A stretch of 64,000 nucleotides of DNA from Ptychodera flava (lineage: Eukaryota; Hemichordata; Enteropneusta; Ptychoderidae), in assembly GCF_041260155.1 (NCBI RefSeq), contig NC_091941.1, forward strand, positions 26,444,247-26,508,246, in the 5' to 3' direction. Under the pieces are notes generated by a model. It worked only from the letters and a program-made list of their open reading frames with translations. It made no database searches and was not told where the DNA came from. Below, piece by piece: positions 9,723 through 63,709 of this stretch. How positions within the stretch are numbered: the stretch's first letter is position 1; each line of letters starts with the position of its first letter. A program made the translations under genes and the position numbers.

Positions 9723-9984
9723 GAGCCTACTGCCTCTTTGTAACCCATTCAGCTGCACTAACATCATGGACCAGGCAACTTGCATCGATTTCAATTTCTG
9801 CGACATGGCGAATTTTCGCCAAGACACGACCCACACAGCTCCGGACGAGAAGCAGTACAGCATACAAAACGTGATCATGCCGATGTTGATCAAGGAAAGT
9901 CTAAAATTCGCCATTAACGCCAAACGAAAGTCTAAAGGACTGGACGAGCTTAGGGTGGAACCTAGGAAAGTAAAGCCAGACAGA
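9723..9984 (+). CDS. Gene A exon with start codon (5'UTR 9723-9765, coding 9766-9984)
   Basis: The exon follows a long T-rich tract ending TTTTCCAG and closes with the strong donor GTAAGT at 9985. It codes 73 residues. An acceptor this good before the ATG implies at least one upstream non-coding exon. The second half of the exon carries the ATF3-type KES-LKFAI motif. The reading frame is open upstream of the acceptor, but that part looks intronic. Confidence 0.88.
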
Positions 9985-11441
9985 GTAAGTGTGAAAACAG
10001 GACTTGTAGGAACGTTGAAGTCGCGTTTCAACTGAGCGCTGTTATGTCATGTACCGTGTACGGGTAATCGTGCGCTTTGCCGATGATTCGGCCAACAACC
10101 CACGTGCGTACTTTCAAATCTTTCGGCCTCTTTTGATTTACCTATAATTATACTGGCATTTTCATAGTTTTCGGGATTTATGCTTCACTCAAAATGGTTT
10201 GAGCTGGTCGATTTACCTTGAATTCGATGGATTTGTTGCGTAGAAATGCAGTGCGTATTTCGCGCTGGAACCGAACGGGCGCCATCTTGGTGTACATGAC
10301 GCCGCTAAATCTGACGACAAAGTGTATGGTTTTTCTGCGAGTAAAGTCTAACTGCTAGGCTCATGCGAAGGCAGAGAAGTTACCACTATCGATTTCCGGA
10401 AATATAGCATTATATTTCTAATTGAATAATGTTACGCGGGAACCGCCATCAGGTCAATGAAGTGTCTCGTTCACTGTTTCGCATTTTTGACAATTTTTTA
10501 CAGCTTACTCCCGAAGAGGAAGAGAAGCGCTCTCGCAGACGAGAGCGTAACAGAGTTGCGGCAGCTAAATGCAGAAACAAGAAGCGGGAAAAGGCTAGTG
10601 TACTCGAAACGGTAATTATTATCACTAGTTGACTTTAAAGAGGTTTACCTTTCAAAACAACAGTCACGTTGTGGATTGCGATGCCTTGCGATCGTCGCAT
10701 GCCATACTGTACGGTGCAAGTTCCGCAGACGTCGCGAACGACTCCTGCCGCACGTAACGGGTTTCCGTAATTTTTGATAGGCGAAAACAAATTGGGAATT
10801 GTCGTTCGCCGGAAGTGGACTTTTATTTGATTATCACACCTGTTCAATAACCGTAGCCGGACCAACATTTCGAAGAGTTTATAATGCACAAGCGACACTG
10901 AGTGACATAGGTTCGAATGCACAAAGAGGGCAATTTTCCTCCCATTGTATGCAAACAGGTAGAGTGCGACGCCGCTATAATGAACGTCTACCCCATTGTA
11001 ATTGATAATGAGGATTGACAAATTTAAAATTACTTCAAGATTCTCGTATCTGGGTAAGAAAACCGAATTGTCGAAGGAAATAAAACACACCCGGTCGTGA
11101 ATTTTCGTCCCGTTGATTGTCTTCCACCTTGTGTGTTAAAGGTGTTCACAAACGTCGGTGACTGACATTTAAACGCCTGTTTATTTTCTCAGGAAACGAG
11201 GCAACTCGAAGAAACCAATGCCAAATTGAAGGCAGATGTCGCCCGGCTCGAAGCCGAGAAGAAGCATCTCTCGGAAGCACTCCAGTCTCACCTGCTGTAC
11301 TGTATGATCCAGCCACCGAGCCCTTGTGCAAATTCGCCCCTCATTCCAGCCACTGCCGTCGATCACGCCATCGCCACACCGTACATGTCTGTAACAGACA
11401 CAACTGCCTTTTCGCAGCCGCTCATGACATCTATGTACTAA
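9766..11441 (+). CDS. Gene A: ATF3/JDP2-like bZIP transcription factor (three coding exons)
   Basis: Coding exons are 9766-9984, 10504-10611 and 11193-11441, joined by two phase-0 introns with GTAAGT/CAG and GTAATT/CAG borders. The 191-residue product is close to vertebrate ATF3 in length. Residues 41-58 hold a KESLKFAI...KRKSKGL segment resembling the KEEL(R/K)FAI motif of ATF3. The basic region (residues about 81-103) has the NRVAAAKCR signature that contacts AP-1/CRE DNA. The zipper has leucines every seven residues, Asn at the buried 'a' position of the second heptad, and ends in an H-x3-C element as in ATF3 and Fos. The tail is Ser/Thr/Pro-rich. It should act in the nucleus as a homo- or heterodimer on TGACGTCA/TGASTCA sites. 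The start is the first ATG after a strong acceptor at 9721-9722. Family identity is firm; whether it is an orthologue of ATF3, of JDP2 or of both cannot be settled by eye. Confidence 0.93.
10280..10290 (+). promoter_or_regulatory. YY1-type motif in gene A intron (possible internal promoter)
   Basis: CGCCATCTTGG matches the YY1 core found near many TATA-less start sites. It lies 139 nt before an ATG (10429) that is open in frame through the basic-region exon. No other promoter element is visible. Confidence 0.2.
10504..10611 (+). CDS. Gene A basic-region exon (108 nt)
   Basis: It codes 36 residues beginning LTPEEEEKR, then an Arg-rich basic region with NRVAAAKCRNKKRE. The length (108 nt) and phase (0/0) match the basic-region exon shared by ATF3 and FOS genes. 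The acceptor is a T-rich tract ending CAG at 10501-10503; the donor is GTAATT at 10612. The frame stays open upstream of the acceptor to an ATG at 10429, so intron retention or an internal start could give a shorter bZIP form. Confidence 0.95.
11193..11441 (+). CDS. Gene A leucine-zipper and C-terminal exon
   Basis: It codes 82 residues. Heptad leucines follow on from the last Leu of the previous exon, with QLEETN, LKADVARL and HL in register, then SHLLYC. The remaining 44 or so residues are Pro/Ser/Thr/Ala-rich with a terminal MTSMY and stop at 11439-11441. The acceptor TTATTTTCTCAG ends at 11192. Confidence 0.93.
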   Translation, partial: ETRQLEETNAKLKADVARLEAEKKHLSEALQSHLLYCMIQPPSPCANSPLIPATAVDHAIATPYMSVTDTTAFSQPLMTSMY

Positions 11442-19608: not shown

Positions 19609-19902
19609 ATGTTCGTGAACTTCTTCCAACTTACGACAAGCCACTGCGTGATAGACAGAGGACACCACAAAATGAACGGCAACACACATCACCACCAGCA
19701 TCATAACAGTACGCATACAGCGGACAGTGGGGATATTACGAAGACGCCCCTGTTGTTGTTGGCCGCCGGATCGACAAGCTCTGGCTGGCAAGACTTGGTC
19801 TGTAGTGGCGGTCACACTGCTGGGTCAAATGCAAGTGCTCAATCCGGAAGCAGCAGCCGAACTGAGCTGACAATCGACATGGACAGCGTAAGAAAGGAAC
19901 AG
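19609..19902 (+). CDS. Gene B first coding exon
   Basis: ATG at 19609 is the first in frame after a TAA at 19588-19590. A second ATG at 19672 has a better context (ACAAA before it) and could be the true start. It codes 98 or 77 residues: HHHQHH, a leucine run, then Gly/Ser/Thr-rich sequence, ending MDSVRKEQ before the donor GTGAGA at 19903. No TATA box is seen upstream. Confidence 0.7.
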
Positions 19903-22366
19903 GTGAGATCTAATACCATTACCATTACGGTATAACCTTCTTAACTACGGGGGGGGGACTGTAGTTGGTGATTGGAAAAATATGCAGCATCGTATGAAAA
20001 TTACTGCTAGTCGGTATCTAACCTACCTACCTACCTACCGCCGTGTTCAAAAGACATGCTGGGTAACCACTTCTCAATACTTGATTCTGCATGCACGTGT
20101 ATGACCGGTTGTCTGGTTTGACATAGAGTGAACTTTGCAGGGTCACTAACATGAAAAGCCGTGTGTCGATAACCATCGCCCCAGTGGAGCGCATGCACTG
20201 GCAGATAATGAGAACGCGAAACCCTGTAGCTGATCGACCCACTTTGACGTAGTGATAACGAACAGCTGATTTTCATGCTCTCGTAAGCTTGTACAATTAT
20301 CTGCCCTCACACAAACCTAGTACAAACCCGGAGTCGCACGTAGGCTTTCATTTTTGAAATTGATAGCGGATGACGTATGATCTGAACACGTGGGCGGGTG
20401 TTCACTCAGATTTGAAACACCCACCTAATTGACTATATCAGTAACTTACCCATAATTCGGCATGGCCTAGTACAAGAGGTCGGTCCTCCCCAAAGCAGAG
20501 GCACATAAAAAATCTGCGTGGCTTTTTACTCAGTGTCCCTTTCTGTCATCAAACAGAACGCCGAGGAGGAGAGACGCCAAAGAAGACGAGAACAGAACAA
20601 ACTCGCCGCCGAACGATACAGAAACAGGAAGCGAGAGTCAACAGACTCTTTGCACAAGGTAAATACAGTCTTCGCATGATCACGTGACCTCAGGCCCAGT
20701 TTACGCGCTTGTGAATTATTTTGCCACACTGAGTCCGATGTCGCTTCGAAGACCGAATTGGGCAAAACTGATGCAACTCTATCTCAGGAAGTACTTACAT
20801 CATCGTGTCAGGTCCGCCCCTATCATCGGAGATGATATCTCAAATTATTTATCGTGCGCACTGAGTAAGTACAAACTTTGTACTCAGTGAGCAGTTTTGG
20901 AGACAGGAAACATTAGGCCTTCATTGACACGCCGTTTGGCTGTATTTCTCCTTAAAATTGTCAAATGTCTATCAGCTTTGTCAAATTTTGTCCTGATTTT
21001 CTTGTTTGACATGTTTTATTCGTTCCCTCCCCTCTGAAACCTATCTGTCATCAACACCTGACATTTTGTGCCCGGAATAGAATTTCTAACATCGTACATC
21101 GTGTATAGAGAATGCAGTGTTTTTGTGTAACTCAACACACGAGGGAGAAAAAGAAAGAAATAACACTTTTTTTGAATGAAGATGACATTGTTATGAAAAG
21201 TCACAGTTATTGTTACTAAAGTGGAAATACGTACAGTTTTATATGCTAAAACAAGAGTGGCTTCAACGAGCTCGAGGTCATTGTCCTGGTCCAGTTGTCG
21301 CTCACTCAGCATTATATAGATGCGTGACTGTGATTGTGCGTTCGTGCCGCGATAAACGGACAAAAATGTTTATCGACAACATATACAACAGGCAAAAATC
21401 ATAACTGCAGAAATTTTACTGTATTTCGTCTTGACCTTCTTTCAAATTGATATTTTCTATATTGCCGAGAGCATCGATGAAATCGACTCTCACAGTCATA
21501 TGTCATAGCACGGGATATGTTGCTGTTGGTTATAAAGTGAAAGAAAGCCTGTCAAGTGTTCCACGATCGCGTGAATCCCGAGCGTTAAGGCGAATAAACA
21601 ACGCTGAGACAATACCTCTGAAAGCTACAAAATTCCAACACCATCACATTTCTTTTCTGTCTGAAATTTTAGCTGTATTACAACAAACTTTGTTTGCACC
21701 CCATCTCTCACACCTTTACAAAGTTTGCCCGTTTTCTGGTTTGCCTTCACATGTACAGGAGTCCGAACGCCTACAGGAAGCTAACGCCGCCCTCCACGAG
21801 AAGATCCGAGCCCTTGAGCATCACAAGAACTTTCTCACCCGTCTCCTGGGTCAAGTGAGACCGAGTGCAATTTTGCAGATGCCTTCGTTTCCCGGCTCCA
21901 TGAAGCTGATGTTCTGAACATATGCACACGCAATCACACAGCTCACTAGCCCATACAAGCCCTCATCTGCTTGTCAGACTATATCAAAGCGCGTATTTTA
22001 TTGAGGGAGCTGAGTGATCCGAGACAATACGAGCCCCGAAGGCAATTTTTTTTCAGGAGCACAAATCTACCGAGTAAATGTGAGTTCAAAAAGTTCTCTG
22101 ATATAGCTTTCAATGTTAACTCTTGTGTACAGATGATCGAGGACCTGCTGGACACCAACATCGCCCTGAAGGCAAAACTGCGCCTCCTTGAGGACAGGAG
22201 AGAGCACTGGGTCCACGCCATCAAAACGATGCGGCTGAGTTGTTCTGTGTGCGAGAGGGAACCCCAGGTAGTGGCTCTCGACCACAGGCACCATCCTCGC
22301 TACCAAGAACAGTCGCATTCTGCAGAACAAACAGAGGCTCTGTGCCTGTCAACAAAGGTGCGGTAA
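19609..22366 (+). CDS. Gene B: divergent BATF/ATF-like bZIP factor with two alternative zipper exons
   Basis: Coding exons are 19609-19902, 20557-20658, then 21759-21917 (with stop) and/or 22133-22366 (with stop). With the first terminal exon the protein is 184 residues (163 from the second ATG at 19672). The N-terminus is His-rich then Ser/Gly-rich and shows no ATF3 motif. The basic region reads EQNKLAAERYRNRKRE: the usual Cys/Ser of the core is Tyr, as in ATF4/ATF5. The zipper (SLHKESERLQEANAAL...) is most like BATF. It is predicted to be a nuclear DNA-binding dimerising factor. Assignment to BATF rests on zipper wording and cluster context only; a lineage-specific ATF3-family member is the main alternative. 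Confidence 0.85.
20557..20658 (+). CDS. Gene B basic-region exon (102 nt)
   Basis: It codes 34 residues, NAEEERRQ then the basic region with NKLAAERYR and SLHK. It is two codons shorter at its 5' side than the matching 108-nt exons of genes A and C, and both borders are phase 0. The acceptor ends AAACAG at 20556; the donor is GTAAAT at 20659. Confidence 0.92.
21759..21917 (+). CDS. Gene B zipper exon 1 (terminal form)
   Basis: It codes 52 residues and a stop. Heptad leucines ERL, AAL, RAL and NFL continue the register of the basic exon, with Asn at the second 'a' position. A tail of about 20 residues rich in Pro and Met follows. The acceptor is ATGTACAG at 21751-21758. A phase-0 donor-like CAA|GTGAGA lies inside it (exon would end at 21854, exactly 32 codons). 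Confidence 0.88.
   Translation, partial: ESERLQEANAALHEKIRALEHHKNFLTRLLGQVRPSAILQMPSFPGSMKLMF
22133..22366 (+). CDS. Gene B zipper exon 2 (duplicated, alternative)
   Basis: It codes 77 residues and a stop. The first 25 or so residues (EDLLDTN, ALKAKLRLLE) align with zipper exon 1 (SERLQEAN, ALHEKIRALE), including the Asn. They keep the same heptad register if joined directly to the basic exon, giving L, L, L, W and M at 'd' positions. An acceptor TGTGTACAG ends at 22132. A Cys-containing LSCSVCE follows the zipper, in the place of the Fos/ATF3 H-x3-C. There is no polyA signal between the two zipper exons. A possible donor CAG|GTAGTG sits near 22269. Confidence 0.7.
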   Translation: MIEDLLDTNIALKAKLRLLEDRREHWVHAIKTMRLSCSVCEREPQVVALDHRHHPRYQEQSHSAEQTEALCLSTKVR

Positions 22367-22560: not shown

Positions 22561-22566
22561 AATAAA
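22561..22566 (+). terminator. Polyadenylation signal AATAAA of gene B
   Basis: It lies 195 nt after the stop of zipper exon 2 and 644 nt after that of zipper exon 1. It is the first AATAAA after either, so both forms could share one 3' end. Confidence 0.5.
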
Positions 22567-22866: not shown

Positions 22867-22914
<48 letters not shown>

Positions 22915-31002: not shown

Positions 31003-33435
31003 GTATAAACGGTTTAAGGTGCGTTAATGTAAAAAGGCGTTGCGTAAAGAAATCCACAAGGTTTTGCCGATCAAAGGAAACTTTGGGATGACAATGACAA
31101 GATGCTTTAGGATATGAGAGAGACATTTCAGGACGATATATTAAATTATCCGTCCCTGATGAAAGATGAACTTGCAAACATGGGCATAACGTTTTTATGC
31201 CCAATCGACTTTAACAGCTTGGTTCCTGCGAGACTTTTTTCAGCTGCACAACACAAAATTGCATCGCAGCTCACGAACGTATGGTAGTTCCTAAGAAATG
31301 CATGAATGAAAACCAATTTGAAGCCATTTAATCGTTCAACTCCAGCGACTACCTTTTACGCCTTTCTTTTATAAAGTTAACGTCAGTACCCTTAGCAGAG
31401 TGCTACTAAAATACAACTTCACAATGCTCTTAAAGTTCTTCATAAATGTGTTTATCAGTTCCCGTCAAGATTTCTGCAACCCTCGAGTTACAGTGGACAA
31501 AGAACTTAAATACACCAGACACGATACACGGACCATAGACTCTTTATACACTCGGCGTTGCGGCTGAATGCTTGCATTCTACAATTTAATAGGTAAATCC
31601 TCAATCTTTCGTAATTTTTACACCTGAGTTCCGCATTAACCGACAATGCCATTCACCAAAACATTCCCTTCACCCCAACGAGTCTGAGCTATTCTCCCAA
31701 CCAGTCTGACCCCTTCTCCGTCTTTTGCAATGTTTATCATATTAATTTTCGTCGGCCTGACATAAAACGAGAGTAAGTTGCGCTACCGAGATATAGCTTT
31801 ATAATATTTAATATTCTCATTTGGGGTTGTGTATTTATTGTTCTGGTTGGTGATAATCTGACATCGCTTTGTCTCCAAGTTTCATGACCCTGCGATACCC
31901 CGGGGCGATACCCAGTATCTATAACATTCTTCAACATAATTGACTGAGATACTGGTCTTTCTGGAATAGAAACTTTTAAGCTTTACTTGCCCTTGGGAAA
32001 TTTGACCGGAAATAAATGTCACATTGTCGTTCAAATACAAAACATGTACTTTCGTCGTCCATGAGTAAGATATGCAACACTACCAAAGGTATTCTTAGGG
32101 CAAAATTTTGTTCAATGTTACGCTAACTTCAAAACTTCGTGGTTTTTCTCGTTCAAATGCCGAAAATCTCGCTAATATTTCATCTTATTTTGTTTTATTT
32201 TGTTTGTGTTAAAACGTCTCACTTCGCTCATTGTTGAATAGTTTGAATCACGTTGCTGACGTGGCAATGTGAAATGATTTAACCCCCCCCCCCCAATTTG
32301 TCTCTCGTGACATGTAGCAGCCTTCGTGTGATTGTGACTGAGTTCCACGTGGCTCGGCATGTTTTGTTGGCAGTTTTCCAGTACTATGAAGAGTTAAATT
32401 ATATATCACCCTTTGTCTGAACATAAGCCCTGGAGCGAGACCTAGGGTCTGTGGTCTGACTAATAAAACCCGTTGATATATTTTTTGCTTCACCAGACCG
32501 GACCCGTTGACAAAAGCGAAAAACGTCTGTTTAGGAGTCAGCATAGTTGTTCTATGTCATTTGTCAAATGGTCAGTCGTCCTTCAAAGGTCAGACGTGAA
32601 ACTCCCGCTAAACAGTGACTTAGTTTTGCTATTGTTTTGACCTCCGCGGGCCACTTACCATTGTCAGAGCTCAGACGAATACAGCATTGTGAGTAAGACC
32701 AGCCACTCAAATTTGATGACGTCATAATTCCAACTTAGTAACATTACGGCGCTTACTGACAACAACAGCTAAAAGGCTATACAAAGAATTTAAAATTGTA
32801 AAAAGGCATAATAATACTAGATTTTCGTGCGTTCTTATCAGGGTTCCAGACTGTAACCTTTGCGCAAGCGCAGAATTATTTCAAGGCGTTGAGTAATCAA
32901 AGCGTGATTTTGCACAAAAACTGCTGATGTCAACATTTCTGGAGATATCATTACAAATTCGTTGCTGACAGTCAAACTTGTCAGAATTTTGTTGCTCTTC
33001 GATCAAGAGGTGGTCTAAGTCTTTTTGCAGTTGAAAACCATTGAAAAATTTCTACTATGGGAGAACCTCAAAAGCAGGTGAGACAACGCAGCTCAATGTT
33101 AGAGGGCGCTGTATTTAAACTTTATTAAAATTGTAAATTCGTCGCTTTTCTCCCTTAGCTATTGAAATTCTTGGATTCAAACAATGGCAGGACGCACATC
33201 TGGACTATTTTTTCCAAGCCAGAATCTCGTTTAATCAAGTCCGAATCTTACACTTGTGTCAAGACATCGAGGGGTGCCGTCACGTCCGGACAAATTATTA
33301 CTCTTCGTTGTATTCATCCCGTGCCCTAATTTGTCATACTAATATGAGACCTGTTTTTGCCTGAGAAACGCGCGGTGTACTTGTAACTACCACTCAGGGT
33401 TGCATCATGATAAGAGGAATGTATGTCAGTATATA
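31003..33435. other. No gene recognised
   Basis: It has a run of 13 C at about 32282-32294 and one CRE; otherwise unremarkable. Confidence 0.45.
32717..32724. promoter_or_regulatory. CRE/ATF site TGACGTCA
   Basis: The context is ATGACGTCAT, in intergenic DNA between genes B and C. Confidence 0.3.
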
Positions 33436-33439
33436 TGGT

Positions 33440-33838
33440 GTATGTATGTATGTATGTATGTATGTATGTATGTATGTATGTATGTATGTATGTATGTATG
33501 TATGTATGTATGTATGTATGTATGTATGTATGTGTATGTGTGTGTGTGTATGTATGTATGTATGTATGTATGTATGTATGTATGTATGTATGTGTATGTG
33601 TATGTGTATGTATGTATGTATGTATGTATGTATGTATGTATGTATGTATGTATGTATGTATGTATGTATGTACATACATATATATATATATATGTGTGTG
33701 TGTGTGCGTGTGTGTTTGTGTGTGTGTATCTATCTATGTATGTGTGTATATATGTCTTTGTGTCTATGTATGTATGTATGTATGTATGTATGTATGTATG
33801 TATGTATGTATGTATGTATGTATGTATGTATGTATGTC
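33440..33838. repeat. Compound (ATGT)n / (GT)n / (TA)n array
   Basis: About 400 bp of ATGT units interrupted by GTGT and TATA blocks. Three long frames through it are repeat artefacts. Confidence 0.98.
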
Positions 33839-33960
33839 ATTATAATTCGAGAACCAGCTCATGTAACGATGCTCCAGGGTGGTGAAAGGATGAACAGTAC
33901 ATGTAACAAACAAGACTGATTAAATTCAATAAACTCACATCGTACGGCACCTAGTGACCT

Positions 33961-34172
33961 ATGTATGTATGTATGTATGTATGTATGTATGTATGTATGT
34001 ATGTATGTATGTATGTATGTATGTATGTATGTATGTATGTATGTATGTATGTATGTATGTATGTATGTATGTATGTATGTATGTGTATTTTCCCTCTATG
34101 TATGTATGTATGTATGTATGTATGTATGTATGTATGTATGTATGTATGTATGTATGTATGTATGTATGTATG

Positions 34173-34231
<59 letters not shown>

Positions 34232-34242
34232 ATCTATATATC
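33961..34242. repeat. (ATGT)n followed by (ATCT)n
   Basis: About 215 bp of ATGT with one TTTTCCCTC interruption, then about 55 bp of ATCT. It is separated from the array before it by 122 bp of unique sequence. Confidence 0.98.
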
Positions 34243-34648
34243 TACAGTGTGTCAATGTATCTATGTTCGATGACGAGTTTTGATGTATTTGTAATTCAGT
34301 CGACATTACCATTAAGTGATTTAACTTGTTTTTCAAATATGTCCAATTGTGATAACACCCTGACTAGGACAATAGTTCCTTGCATGAACATTGACAGCAC
34401 AGAAGGGTCTCTTCATAAACGGTCCGTTTGAGACGAACCATATATAGTGATTTTTCTTAACTCTTTAGATTGTTTGATATCACCCTACAGTTCATCCGCC
34501 GTCATTTTCACGTGGTTTTGCAAAGGGCTTTGCTTTTCCTGTCGTTTTAATAGACAGGCTTTTGCTCAGACTGGCGGGACACATTGTTGACATATGGAAG
34601 TTAAAATTTTATCTGTGTCACACATTTTGCATTAATATTAGCAATGAA

Positions 34649-47200: not shown

Positions 47201-49525
47201 AAACTTTCCAAGCTAAACCTCAAACCCACCTTGCGTAGTGTGCTTTACTCAGAACCTTTAACAATTTGTAGTCATTTGCGAGGAATAACCGCGGTTCCAG
47301 GTAATGGACAAAATATATAAATGCATACGAACGCAACTTCCGGTGGCGTTAGAGCGCCTGCGCACAATAGGGACGGACTTTTCTATATTTGGTCGACGTG
47401 GGGAATGCCTTGCTCTGAATGCGTTGGAGTGTTCTATATATGTAACTCAGCCCACGGATTCGGAATACTGTCAAGTTTGAGCTATAAAACAGGCAATTAT
47501 ATTCAAGCTAAGAGATTCGAGCGCTGCAGTGCGAGCGAGAAGCTACAATAGAATGGACTCTCAGCAACAAATGACCGTAGTACCTAATTTTGATCAACTA
47601 CAGCCGGACGAACAGGTGGGTCACCACGTGTAGCGCGTCTGCATCACAATTTAAACCAATTCTGTATGCGTACATATAAATGTATGCATATTTATATATG
47701 TATTAATACATATTCACTCACATTGATATATTTGTACATATGTGTATATACACATATTGTTTTATATATTACGTTTCAGATCTTTACTTATTTATTTATT
47801 TTTTTTTTCACTTACAGTTGTCACCTGAAGAAGAACAGAAAAGACACGAGAGAAGAGAGAGAAACAGACTCGCTGCGACGAAATGTCGAAATAAAAAGAG
47901 AGACCACATGCTGACGTTAGAAAAGGTAAATATTGAGATATAGGCCTACTTAGAATAATCAGCACGGGTGTCTCTCATTTTGGGTCGACCTACTTAACTC
48001 GGTGAATGTAACGTCACAGCCATGGCTAACAAGGTTGATATCGCATCGGATAAGCTCAGTATAGTAACGCTGACACCGGTAAATTGAAGGTGTTGTGTTT
48101 GAAGATCGCGAGGAAAACTTAAATTAAAGTCACATCAAAATTCCATCTGCAGTGTTGCGTGTTTTATGCCCGTTGAAAAAGGTTAGAAGCGTTTGACACG
48201 CGCAGTGCGACCGACGTTCGACAACGCACACTGATAACAATGGTACTCACATTCATTGTCTGTTTCGTGGAATTCAGCTTCGAGGAAATCGCACCAGTTC
48301 GGCAAAACTGATTAAAATTTAATGCAGGTTCAAGGTCGCAAACCGCCTCTCGCGTTTTTTTCGCATTCCAGCAATCGTTAACTTTAGCTGCCTGACAAGA
48401 AAGGTACCTGACAAACGTGAACTACGGTAACACGCTGAGCCAAACCGGGACGCAGCCGCCGGTTTGTGAAATGAAATCAGCGGAATTCCTAGCTTGCGCA
48501 TGCGCAGATCGCCGAACGCTTCGTTCTTTCGTTTCAAGATTTATTGAAGGTCGGTTTCAGCGTATCGATTTTCAAAGAATAGCGCTGCGCTTTCTTTTCA
48601 GCAAAATCGTTGAATTAGTCTTGTTTATTAGTCTTACTTGTTCAAGCCACATTTTCTTGAACTGGGAGCGTTAAGTGAGGGTTAGATTACTCGGAACTGT
48701 TGTTGAGTTACACAGGCGCTTGGGAATCCGTCAGCCGCGCGTTCCTCGGGAAGTCCGCCAATCAAGGGGGAGTCCTGAAAGTACGTGTAGAAATTTTCTG
48801 ACCATGAGGGGCAAACCCTTGATCACGTAACAGAAATTGTCACCCAGCGAGGATGAATCATAATTAATCATGCGAGTGATCCAAATTTTTGCCACCGTAG
48901 CATCATTAACCATTTTAATTCTCCCTTACATCTGGTTATCAGTGACTTTATATCAGTGTTATCGGAACTTTAAAACTCATGTGTGATGTGTCGCATAACA
49001 CGACCCGTACCGTTATCGCTGTCGTTATTATTGCGTCGTGCCGTTCGAAACTAGGCCGCCATACGGACGAACAGGTCACTGGTTTTGCCGGACAACGTTG
49101 TTACAATTTTTACTACTAAAAATTTACATAAATGCATATAATACTCAATGCAAACACACGAGAGATATATGTCGCCATCGAATTTTGTGTTAATTTGATT
49201 TTAAACAGGGGAGTCAGTGTACGTTAGGCGAAAACAAAAATTCACACCTTGTATATATTTTAATTGTTTATGATCAGCTTTGTTACACAGATCAATGAAT
49301 GTAGACTTGAAATTATCTGAAAGGTCAAGCAATATTTTTTTTTGCTGATTTCCCTCCCATCAGGAAACGCATAAACTTGAGGTGCAGAAGGAATTTCTAT
49401 TGGATCAAGTGGAAAAGTTACAAAGAGAAAAAGAAGAACTAACGTTCCTGCTGGATGCCCATCTGATTCAGTGTACCAGAACGAACAATGTTGCGTGTAC
49501 ACCTCAATGTAGCAGAGACTGTTGA
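43992..49525 (+). CDS. Gene C: ATF3-like bZIP factor with Fos-like zipper (long form)
   Basis: Coding exons are 43992-44270, 47818-47925 and 49364-49525, with introns of 3.5 and 1.4 kb, all phase 0. The product has 182 residues, like ATF3. Residues 65-83 hold LKEEIKYTIQTKRLARGLS, the ATF3-type N-terminal motif. The basic exon starts LSPEEEQKR and contains NRLAATKCRNKKR. The zipper has leucines in register and ends LDAHLIQC. The second-heptad 'a' position is Lys, as in Fos, where ATF3, JDP2 and genes A and B have Asn; this should disfavour homodimers. The C-terminal tail after the zipper is short and Cys-rich. Joining of the 43992 exon to 47818 is inferred from phase and motif order. Confidence 0.88.
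46137..46484 (+). mobile_element. MITE family 1, copy 3
   Basis: It is 348 bp, from TTAAGATAGTATGCGCCTCG to GGCGCGTTCTACCTTAA. It is the best-matched partner of copy 2 and sits in intron 1 of gene C. Confidence 0.7.
46508..46515. promoter_or_regulatory. CRE/ATF site TGACGTCA in gene C intron 1
   Basis: The context is TTTGACGTCATAA, about 1 kb upstream of the intronic TATA promoter and 24 nt beyond a MITE copy. Confidence 0.3.
47336..47488 (+). promoter_or_regulatory. Intronic TATA promoter of gene C
   Basis: It holds an ETS site ACTTCCGG (47336-47343), an NRF1-like GCGCCTGCGCA (47354-47364), a CArG-like CTATATTTGG (47383-47392, one base off consensus) and TATAAA (47483-47488). The expected start near 47513 precedes the short first exon at 47553. 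ETS plus CArG recalls the serum response element of FOS, but the CArG is imperfect. Confidence 0.5.
47553..47615 (+). CDS. Gene C alternative short first exon
   Basis: An ATG 65 nt downstream of a TATAAA box opens 21 codons (MDSQQQM...QPDEQ) that end exactly at a phase-0 donor, CAG|GTGGGT. Splicing to 47818 gives a 110-residue protein that is little more than the bZIP domain and lacks the ATF3-type N-terminal motif. It could instead mark a separate gene, with the 43992 exon belonging elsewhere. Confidence 0.65.
47818..47925 (+). CDS. Gene C basic-region exon (108 nt)
   Basis: It codes 36 residues, LSPEEEQKRHERRERN then LAATKCRNKKRD. The length and phase are those of the gene A exon and of the ATF3/FOS family exon. 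The acceptor is a long T tract ending CTTACAG; the donor is GTAAAT at 47926. Confidence 0.95.
48495..48506. promoter_or_regulatory. NRF1-type palindrome TGCGCATGCGCA in gene C intron
   Basis: A perfect 12-bp palindrome matching the NRF1 consensus. It sits between the basic and zipper exons, with no exon or TATA beside it. Confidence 0.3.
49364..49525 (+). CDS. Gene C leucine-zipper and C-terminal exon
   Basis: It codes 53 residues: heptad leucines in KLEVQKEFL, QVEKL and EELTFLL, then AHLIQC and a short tail with four more Cys. The acceptor is CTCCCATCAG at 49354-49363 after a T-rich tract. The stop is TGA at 49523-49525. The tail is about 30 residues shorter than that of gene A. Confidence 0.93.
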   Translation, partial: ETHKLEVQKEFLLDQVEKLQREKEELTFLLDAHLIQCTRTNNVACTPQCSRDC

Positions 49526-60580: not shown

Positions 60581-61097
60581 TCATTCCAAGAACCCTTCCT
60601 CGCATGTGTTCAACGAGCACTGCTGTATGCGTTTCGTAGAACAACAATATAAATGGTAAATAGCATTTAGGTTTTTGAGAAAGCCTATTTCTTTCTCTTT
60701 TTATTTCATTTCTTATAAATTCGTCAACTGCTGCAGCCCTATTGTCAATTTCGGAGTATCGGCAATTAATTGATGTTCGGACCTGCTTACTGCTATACAG
60801 TGAACAAGTAGTGCACAGCGCACTAGGAACATGTTAGGCATGCTGCTTAAGGCATTGTCATATAGGCAGCGGCTTCTGTCAGCAACAACTAACACGGTGT
60901 ATAGGGGCCACCGAACTCTGCTAATTTGTCACTCGTTTATTAATTTTTCGAAAAGAAAGTAACAATTTCACAACATCGAACACATCATAACATCGAACGG
61001 TGGTTGCAATGGTGGCAAGGGACGTCTCAAAAACTTCACATTTTCTATGAGTTCAAATCGTTCATTGTGCATTTTATAATTATATGGTCGAAAAACG

Positions 61098-61345
61098 CAT
61101 GCATGCATGTACATACATACATACATGCATGCATGCATGCATGCATGCATGCATACATGCATACACACATACATGCATGCATGCATGCATGCATGCGTAC
61201 GTACGTACGTACGTACGTACGTACGTACGTACGTACGTACGTACGTACATACATACATACATACATACATACATACATACATACATACATACATACATAC
61301 ATACATACATACATACATACATACATACATACATACATACATACA
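61098..61345. repeat. Compound (GCAT)n-(ACGT)n-(ACAT)n array
   Basis: GCAT-rich units to about 61196, then about 12 ACGT units (61197-61247), then about 24 ACAT units. The first two blocks are self-complementary. Long frames across it are artefacts. Confidence 0.98.
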
Positions 61346-63709
61346 CATCGTGCCTTTAAATTCAATGTTAGTTATTCACTTCATTTTTTTGCAAAATTCT
61401 GTAAATGCAGGAAAAAGTACTAGTTCTTTATTGAACGTTAATCTCTTATTTATGCCACTAACTTAAAGAGAAAATTTGTTACATATATCTTAAATTTCAT
61501 TTCAAAATAAGTTAGCCTGTTGTAAACCCATAAAAGGTCATTGATTCATATTATCATTCAAATAAATGCTTGGTCTACGGCCGAAGTAAAAAAAAATAGA
61601 CAAGCGTATTTATAGGCACTTAGTGTCATTATGGTCAGAAAGAGGGACATCTTTTATGACCTTCAATAATGTCTGTACTAATGCCGATACAGTGGTCTAG
61701 CCATGATTACACACAGCGGTGCTGAGTGGAATTTCGTAAAACTGTATTTTTTAATCGAGTTGTTTTGCAAATGAGATTGTCACAAAAATGTGTATGTCTG
61801 TCAAGTAACCTCGCAGAGTACATCAGCCATGGCTGTTTCTTGTCTATTTCTAACCTTCGAACCTTTCCACCTTTGACATTATGTCTAGTGCATCCGTGGT
61901 TTTCCCGCCAAAGCCCATAAAGCAGACGTGATGCACACGGGTAAAGGCGTGTACAGTCAAGAAGAAAAAGAGGTCGATTTTGACTTCATACAGATATCGC
62001 TGAACCGACCTAAAGTTGGATTAAAATAACGCGATTTGAAAGAACCGGCCTGCACTGAATGTAAACGTGTGACCTCAAAACCCATCCATTATCTACCCCT
62101 AGTAAGCAACTTTTTAAGGCCAGCGAGTTCCAAGATGATGTTCTGTGCACACATTCAATCCTGCACTCAGTGAAGACCAAGCTGAAAGTTGGCATTTTTC
62201 AAACCATATTTTATTTCGTTTATATATGTTAACACCGTATTTAGACACAAGTACTATGAACGCCAATGCAACATAGAAGAGGTAGGAAGGAGGTCATTGA
62301 ATTTCATTTGATTATATTCTTGTAAATTGGTCACTTTCATGACCCCATACAAAGTTACATCCCAATACTTTGGTATGAGTGGCATTAAAAACTAAATATT
62401 TAGTGCGAGAAAAAATGCACTCGTTCGTTAAAGTCAGTGACAGTGGTAATTCGTCAGCGAATTGTGTTAATATGGTTTGTAATCACTGAGTTTTCAACCG
62501 GAATGTTTGAGCCATAATTCATATATACCACGCTGTAAGGTCATGTAGGGTCATTGAAATGTTACTCCTTATCGTTCTGTTGACTTTCTACAACATTCAT
62601 ACCTGCGCGTCTACGCATGCGCTATAAAACAGACTCTACGCTATCACATCTGTTTACCTGAGCAGCTACAACAAGTATCTTACAAACAATTTGAACCCAA
62701 AAAAAAGTCATGCAGCATTTAAAAGGGCAATGTCAACGTCCTTATCCACTTCGAAGAATCCTTTATCACACTGTATACCTACTGCAGATTTGAAGGCTTT
62801 AAGTTACTCAATCGTGGAGGCAGACTTGCTCGTAGGAGGCGCCCTTTCGTGACAGGGACCCCTTTTTGCGACTCTTCCTTATTACGAATATATTGTTCAA
62901 TTTAGATAGTATGTCGACTACATTTGGCAGATATGCTGCCTAAGACATGGGTAAACTACCAGTATTAAACTGCAACTTCGGCGAATTGAAGGCGAACATA
63001 CAGCGCGTCGCCAAGTTTAGCTATCTCATTAGATATATTATACACGCACCTGATTAGTTATGAGGTAATCAGCCAATTAGAGACAGCATTGTCAGACTGG
63101 TCCACCACATACGGCCTTAATGTAGTACGTAATTTTTGCCTCATTGATTTTCTACCACCATAGTTATGAAGGGGTCAAAGGGACACAGTCGTCGCTTTCA
63201 ATGATTTTGTGTCAAGACATATCTCTTCAATTATTACCACAATTTGAATTCAAATAATAGTAATAAAATAAACCTTCATCGAGGTTAACAGTTCACGGAC
63301 ACATGGTATCCACTCATTAACAATTTTTGATGGATACCAAAAATTGACAAATTGTTTACTGCATCGGCCCTGTCTACTTGTGGATTTGAAGATGAGCTTT
63401 GCCGACAACTCTTTCAGCATAATTCAGGGTTCTGACCATTGAATAGACTTCCGACCAATGTATTGGATGGACATTCCCTCCCGTAACGTTTTGCATATGA
63501 TGTCTGACAAGGATGCAACAGGACCATTTTAAAAGCAAATATAAAATGTGGATCGGGCTATATGAACAAAATGAAAGTTGTAGACTTGAACATCTATATA
63601 CCACTGCACTTAAGACATAAAATGTTCGTGATACATTGTAAATGAAGTTATTGGACTTGCACTTACGAAAAAAAAATAATCTTGACTCAACTTACAGCTA
63701 TATATTAGT
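61346..63709. other. No gene recognised
   Basis: It includes the isolated TATA candidate at 62623; otherwise only short frames. If the 60319 exon is real, its later exons may lie here or beyond the window. Confidence 0.4.
62614..62628 (+). promoter_or_regulatory. Possible core promoter: NRF1-like site and TATAAA
   Basis: CGCATGCGC abuts TATAAA (62623-62628). The first ATG downstream (62710) opens only 27 codons. No gene is assigned. Confidence 0.25.

What the first reader, a model, noticed from the sequence alone, without database searches (positions are those of the whole stretch)
20557..22366. Gene B has two homologous leucine-zipper exons after one basic-region exon
Both exons (21759 and 22133) start at good acceptors in phase 0. 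Their proteins align: SERLQEAN..ALHEKIRALE versus EDLLDTN..ALKAKLRLLE. Joined to the basic exon, either one keeps leucines at the same heptad spacing and the buried Asn at the same place, while e/g residues differ. Only 215 nt separates them and no polyA signal intervenes. This suggests alternative splicing that swaps dimer partners while DNA binding stays the same. I know of no described ATF3/BATF/FOS gene with a duplicated zipper exon.
Basis: partly seen in the sequence, partly recalled or inferred. Interest (0 to 1): 0.88.

Follow-up and report, generated by a model that had tools for sequence, protein, structure and literature searches.

The report
Gene with two alternative zipper exons
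In acorn worms, one gene for a DNA-binding protein carries two interchangeable end pieces, so the same DNA-gripping part can be joined to either of two pairing helices, and both pieces have been kept in distantly related acorn worms.

Summary
The window is from the acorn worm Ptychodera flava. Gene B joins one basic-region exon (20557-20658) to either of two zipper-plus-tail exons, z1 (21759-21917) or z2 (22133-22366), through phase-0 GT-AG junctions. Public annotation holds both forms, isoform X2 (z1) and X1 (z2), letter for letter as the window encodes them. Saccoglossus kowalevskii also has both (P0004 z1, P0005 z2). Glandiceps talaboti has z2 and a zipperless form; its z1 was not found.

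Three corrections. z1 and z2 are no more alike than either is to some other zippers, so direct duplication is not shown. The swap also exchanges conserved C-terminal tails. A change of dimer partners is inferred, not shown; charge counting gives only a modest difference.

The closest precedent is mammalian CREM, with two alternative bZIP ends. This is the same trick in another bZIP group, probably through competition between two 3' splice sites. My literature searches showed no paper on it, but automated annotation already lists the isoforms.

The parts
19609..19902 (+). Gene B coding exon 1 (98 codons from the annotated ATG), followed by donor GTGAGA
   Evidence: translation equals residues 1-98 of P0001 and P0002
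20557..20658 (+). Shared basic-region exon, 34 codons, phase 0 at both ends
   Evidence: bZIP_1 and bZIP_2 above Pfam cut-offs for both isoforms
21759..21917 (+). Zipper exon z1 with its own C-terminal tail and TGA stop; NCBI isoform X2
   Evidence: 36 of 52 aligned positions identical to the Saccoglossus z1 segment, E 5e-26
21855..21860 (+). Donor-like site inside z1 (CAA|GTGAGA) that would leave a 96-nt phase-0 z1 exon able to splice to z2; no isoform using it was seen
   Evidence: sequence only; inference
22073..22078 (+). AGTAAA, the one variant polyA-like hexamer between z1 stop and z2 acceptor
   Evidence: 11 hexamers tried
22133..22366 (+). Zipper exon z2 with its own C-terminal tail (CxxC) and TAA stop; NCBI isoform X1
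   Evidence: 40 of 77 aligned positions identical to Glandiceps, 18 of 41 to Saccoglossus
22561..22566 (+). AATAAA, the first canonical polyA signal after z2, probably shared by both forms
   Evidence: use by both forms is inference

Best explanation
Gene B of Ptychodera flava is a bZIP transcription factor gene whose basic-region exon is joined to one of two alternative terminal zipper exons. Choosing the near 3' splice site (21759) gives isoform X2: zipper z1 and a tail ending PSFPGSMKLMF; z2 then probably lies in the 3' UTR. Choosing the far site (22133) leaves z1 inside the intron and gives isoform X1: zipper z2 and a tail with a CxxC motif. Shown: both reading frames, junction sequences, annotated isoforms, and conservation of both forms in Saccoglossus and of z2 in Glandiceps. 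Inferred: that choice is by competition between the two 3' splice sites in one composite last exon sharing the AATAAA at 22561, and that the forms dimerise with different partners or recruit different cofactors on similar DNA sites.
For: Both isoforms are in public annotation on a contig of 41,862,543 bases and match the window letter for letter. S. kowalevskii LOC100376084 X1 and X2 are identical for 138 residues and then carry z2 and z1; the split falls at the place of the P. flava junction, give or take one shared Glu. Glandiceps X1 carries z2. Segment comparisons: z2 Pf-Gt E 1e-24, z2 Pf-Sk E 4e-12, z1 Pf-Sk E 5e-26. Distinguishing core residues are kept: z2 d5 W and a4 R in 3 of 3, z1 d5 L and a4 K in 2 of 2. 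AlphaFold gives one unbroken helix over basic region and zipper in each form (z2 form 91-168, z1 form 91-165; 10-residue pLDDT means 93-98 over residues 91-160, 78-80 over 161-170). No canonical polyA signal in the gap. P. flava-S. californicum ancestor more than 370 mya (PMC11175523, passage).
Against: No RNA reads could be examined; that the annotated isoforms rest on RNA-seq is my general knowledge of NCBI models. A z1 form of Glandiceps was not found in three searches. Charge pairing does not separate z1 from z2 for self or mutual dimers (each 2 attractive, 0 repulsive). AGTAAA at 22073 could end z1 transcripts before z2, and the donor-like site at 21855 could make a longer z1-z2 form. The helix models rest on alignments of only 7 and 6 sequences, mean pLDDT is 59.9 and 63.1 because the rest is disordered, and single helices say nothing about dimers.
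Confidence: 0.8

Rival explanations
1. The z1 and z2 forms are real, but the zippers are near-equivalent in dimerisation. The important difference is the C-terminal tail, or z1 choice is regulatory through the 3' UTR or RNA stability.
For: Charge counts are equal for self and mutual pairing, and both zippers keep the Asn. Tails are conserved: CxxC and EQ-(2-3 residues)-LC in 3 of 3 z2 proteins, PSFxGxMKLxF end in 2 of 2 z1 proteins.
Against: Core residues differ and the differences are conserved (d5 L or W, a1 S or I, a3 I or L, a4 K or R).
Confidence: 0.3
2. z1 is also an internal 96-nt cassette: the donor-like site at 21855 joins z1 to z2, giving a 241-residue protein with an extended coiled coil rather than a pure either-or swap.
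For: CAA|GTGAGA at the right phase (length). The Saccoglossus protein keeps Gln-Val at that place.
Against: No such form among the six gene B products returned by the searches, all six read. The annotated z1 forms run on to their own conserved tail.
Confidence: 0.08
3. z2 is the remnant of a separate, neighbouring bZIP gene (zipper exon of a decayed tandem copy), captured by annotation.
For: Three bZIP genes lie in tandem in the window. z2 grouped with the gene A zipper is not rejected (p-AU 0.276).
Against: tblastn with the basic exon found no other basic exon between z1 and z2. z2 is conserved and attached to the same basic region in three species. This could be its origin, but it is no longer a separate gene.
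Confidence: 0.04

Closest known systems
CREM (mammalian cAMP-responsive element modulator) with DBD I and DBD II
   Same: One bZIP gene with two alternative C-terminal bZIP ends selected by splicing (passages of PMC3941242 and PMC3285179).
   Different: CREB family, not FOS/ATF3-type. CREM DBD I and II are said to have strong homology, and the ICER forms to be in principle functionally equivalent; here z1 and z2 share only 11/37. As I recall, part of the CREM basic region is also swapped, whereas here it is wholly shared.
ATF3/JDP2, FOS and BATF genes
   Same: Basic region and zipper on separate exons with a phase-0 intron at the same place as genes A and C; the same boundary in the human genes is recalled. 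Best PDB matches are c-Fos and FosB.
   Different: Two alternative zipper exons. EQN...RYR (AKYR in Saccoglossus) in the basic region instead of ERN...KCR.
ATF4/ATF5
   Same: Basic region EQNK.AA.RYR..KR; trees join gene B to ATF4/5 (96/95, 95/96).
   Different: With zippers alone ATF4/5 stand apart (100/99), though z1 held with them is not rejected (p-AU 0.399). Gene B in the FOS/ATF3/BATF class is not rejected either (p-AU 0.237). ATF4's bZIP lies in one exon (recalled).
Zipper-lacking or truncated splice forms such as ATF3 deltaZip and delta-FosB (recalled, not looked up)
   Same: Splicing changes the C-terminal half of an AP-1 type protein.
   Different: Those remove or truncate a part; here one complete zipper replaces another. 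The Glandiceps X3 form (P0006) is of the zipperless kind.

Membership tests
bZIP transcription factor | Pfam bZIP_1/bZIP_2 above curated cut-off with each zipper | tested here: met
   P0001 and P0002: bZIP_1 35.0 and 37.8 bits (cut-off 27.6), bZIP_2 27.7 and 32.8 (cut-off 22.3)
bZIP transcription factor | unbroken helix through basic region and zipper, leucines at heptad d | tested here: met
   (monomer models, shallow alignments)
FOS/ATF3/BATF class | phase-0 intron exactly between basic and zipper halves | tested here: met
   same in genes A, B and C of the window; human structure recalled
FOS/ATF3/BATF class | groups with that class in a tree | tested here: inconclusive
   joins ATF4/5 at 95/96; held in the class p-AU 0.237; zippers alone leave it with the class, ATF4/5 apart by a 100/99 branch, but z1 with ATF4/5 is not rejected (p-AU 0.399)
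FOS/ATF3/BATF class | Cys in the basic region (KCR) | tested here: not met
   Tyr in Pf, Gt and Sk; BATF has Ser (recalled), so this feature is not universal in the class
CREM-type gene with two alternative bZIP ends | two zipper-coding 3' ends used alternatively by one gene | tested here: met
   annotated isoforms in two species; RNA not seen. Works like CREM.
CREM itself (CREB family) | CREB-type bZIP sequence | tested here: not met
   no CREB or CREM chain among the 8 PDB sequences listed for each form at E<=0.1; recalled human CREB1 falls outside with JUN/ATF2 in the tree (85/88, flagged long branches)
tandem duplicated mutually exclusive exons | exons descend from each other | tested here: inconclusive
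   support 57/76 and 44/68; BLASTP none, tblastn E 0.20-1.0

The most novel reading that the evidence does not exclude
An acorn-worm-wide zipper switch, more than 370 million years old, in a FOS/ATF3-type gene: 3' splice-site choice holds the DNA-reading region constant while exchanging the entire dimerisation helix and the C-terminal tail, so cells re-wire which AP-1/ATF partner occupies the same sites. It arose independently of CREM.
Probability: 0.5. Interest if true: 0.72.

Novelty: new variant of a known kind. Interest (0 to 1): 0.56.

Why it matters
bZIP specificity is set jointly by the basic region and the dimer partner. A natural gene that keeps the first and swaps the second, conserved between deeply split families, is a ready experiment on how much of target choice comes from dimerisation. 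It also suggests that the CREM solution exists in a second bZIP group, probably independently, and it is a warning for annotation, since the two products of this one gene are named 'c-Fos-like' and 'ATF-3-like'.

Tried and rejected
Chance ORF for z2: rejected (rank 4 of 1441 open sites; orthologues). z1 and z2 as proven duplicates: not accepted; each is as close to some other zipper. Gene B as BATF, my first guess from remembered residues: not supported by the trees. Partner change from charge pairs: only modest differences (attractive/repulsive: with JUN z1 1/1, z2 0/2; with FOS z1 0/2, z2 2/1), so it is left as inference. Pfam on five other long ORFs of the window, out of 18 of at least 130 aa listed: no match at E<=0.01. 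Literature: ten searches listed no title on this gene. I read listings with the starts of abstracts, and passages of five papers; one search listed 12 of 86 papers, 12 of 15, 8 of 16. The library holds open-licence papers only.

Full report
Source. The window has no whole genome held. A search with the joined z2 product returned P0001, 100% identical over the query: 'protein c-Fos-like isoform X1 [Ptychodera flava]', on a contig of 41,862,543 bases. It also returned P0002, 'cyclic AMP-dependent transcription factor ATF-3-like isoform X2', on a contig of the same length. P. flava is an enteropneust hemichordate of the family Ptychoderidae. P0001 (209 aa) and P0002 (184 aa) are identical to the window's exon 1 + basic exon + z2 and exon 1 + basic exon + z1.

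Anatomy. The coding exons are 19609-19902, 20557-20658 and then either 21759-21917 or 22133-22366. All junctions are GT-AG and phase 0. z1 and z2 are in different frames of the genome (offset 374 nt, remainder 2). The gap after the z1 stop is 215 nt. It holds no AATAAA or ATTAAA, and of 11 hexamers tried only AGTAAA at 22073; after z2 there is AATAAA at 22561. The other AATAAA near the gene, at 21593, lies in the intron before z1. The simplest reading (inference) is one composite last exon with two competing acceptors, the z1 mRNA carrying z2 in its 3' UTR. A donor-like CAA|GTGAGA at 21855 would allow a third, joined form of 241 residues; none was seen.

Not chance. A zipper profile made from nine human zippers (typed from recall) and those of genes A and C was scored in phase 0 at 1441 AG sites open for 30 codons, of 6648. 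It separates four sites from the rest: genes A and C (68.7 and 69.7, partly by construction), z1 (24.6) and z2 (10.6); the next site has -15.2. So in this scan no further phase-0 zipper exon of this type shows in the window, and genes A and C have one each.

Relatives. Three protein searches were run (3, 3 and 36 proteins listed; the last scored only the 7993 candidates sharing most words). I read 11 of the 36 sequences. Six of the 36 are gene B products: two of P. flava, S. kowalevskii LOC100376084 X2 (P0004, z1 type) and X1 (P0005, z2 type), and G. talaboti X1 (P0003, z2 type) and X3 (P0006, basic region then seven residues and stop). The two Saccoglossus proteins are identical for 138 residues and part where the P. 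flava junction lies, after one further shared Glu. Segment comparisons beyond the boundary: z1 Pf-Sk 36/52 identical, z2 Pf-Gt 40/77, z2 Pf-Sk 18/41. A Glandiceps z1 form was not returned by any search; loss and missing data cannot be told apart. Glandiceps is a spengelid and Saccoglossus a harrimaniid. PMC11175523 (passages) calls Ptychoderidae and Spengelidae sister groups, with Harrimaniidae completing Enteropneusta, and puts the P. flava-S. californicum ancestor (ptychoderid and spengelid) at more than 370 million years ago. Both zippers in Ptychodera and Saccoglossus therefore date the pair to at least that age, unless it was gained twice.

What differs between the forms. Heptad letters: z1 d LLLLL, a SNIKL, e HQHET, g EAKHL; z2 d LLLLW, a INLRI, e HLKEV, g MTKRA. 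The z2 Trp (d5) and Arg (a4) are kept in 3 of 3 species, and the z1 Leu and Lys in 2 of 2. Counting only charged g-e' pairs, z1 and z2 are alike for self and mutual pairing (2 attractive, 0 repulsive each). They differ for human JUN (z1 1/1, z2 0/2) and FOS (z1 0/2, z2 2/1). That is a hint, not a result. The tails also differ and are conserved: CxxC and EQ-(2-3 residues)-LC after z2 (3 of 3), PSFxGxMKLxF at the end of z1 (2 of 2). AlphaFold models show one helix through basic region and zipper in both forms (91-168 and 91-165), with disordered N-terminal parts. These are monomer models on 7 and 6 sequences.

Family. Both forms pass the Pfam bZIP cut-offs, and the best PDB relatives by sequence are c-Fos for X1 and FosB for X2. 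Genes A (basic 10504-10611) and C (47818-47925) have the same phase-0 intron. The basic region of B reads EQN...RYR, like ATF4/5. With human sequences from recall, the whole-bZIP tree puts B with ATF4/5 (96/95, 95/96), which counts against a plain FOS/ATF3 label. Holding B in the FOS/ATF3/BATF class is not rejected (p-AU 0.237). With zippers alone ATF4/5 separates from all others, though z1 held with ATF4/5 is not rejected (p-AU 0.399). I file B as a divergent FOS/ATF3-type bZIP on intron position and neighbourhood, with the subfamily open.

Origin of the pair. z1 and z2 share 11/37 residues, no more than with human ATF3 (14/37 and 10/37) or gene A (11/37 and 12/37) taken together. BLASTP finds no z1-z2 alignment; tblastn without composition correction gives E 0.20 to 1.0. 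z1 plus z2 as one clade has weak support (57/76; 44/68), and z2 with gene A is not rejected (p-AU 0.276). Tandem exon duplication and capture of a neighbour's zipper exon both remain open.

Known precedents. CREM has two alternative bZIP ends, DBD I and DBD II; for ICER the review says all isoforms appear in principle functionally equivalent (PMC3941242, passage; PMC3285179, passages). The original 1991 report was seen only as a reference entry. So the principle is known; its use in a FOS/ATF3-type gene, with strongly different zippers and tails conserved over deep time, did not show in ten searches of an open-licence library. The isoforms themselves are in public automated annotation, so the sequences are not new.

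Verdict. The feature is real, conserved and annotated. Alternative use is well supported at the level of gene models in two species; no RNA was seen here. A partner switch is plausible but untested.

Noticed in passing
10504-10611 and 11193 onward; 47818-47925 and 49364 onward: Two more bZIP genes (A and C), same strand, flank gene B, so three lie in tandem within about 40 kb. Open stretches at 9853 and 44112 encode KES/KEE...I..KR-type motifs that resemble ATF3's N-terminal part (resemblance recalled).
   Followed up: partly
P0006 (Glandiceps talaboti, not in the window): Isoform X3 ends seven residues after the basic exon, a zipperless form, which might act as a decoy or be a non-productive transcript.
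   Followed up: no
22133-22366: The z2 tail has a CxxC motif and EQ-(2-3 residues)-LC conserved in three species, a possible metal or redox site outside the zipper.
   Followed up: partly
20557-20658: Tyr replaces the conserved Cys of the AP-1 basic region in all three acorn worms, as in ATF4, so DNA preference or redox control may differ.
   Followed up: partly
22869-22912; 33326-34431; 60944-61423: Long simple repeats: a (TA)n run just after gene B, and four-base ACAT/ATGT-type arrays that give false open frames.
   Followed up: no
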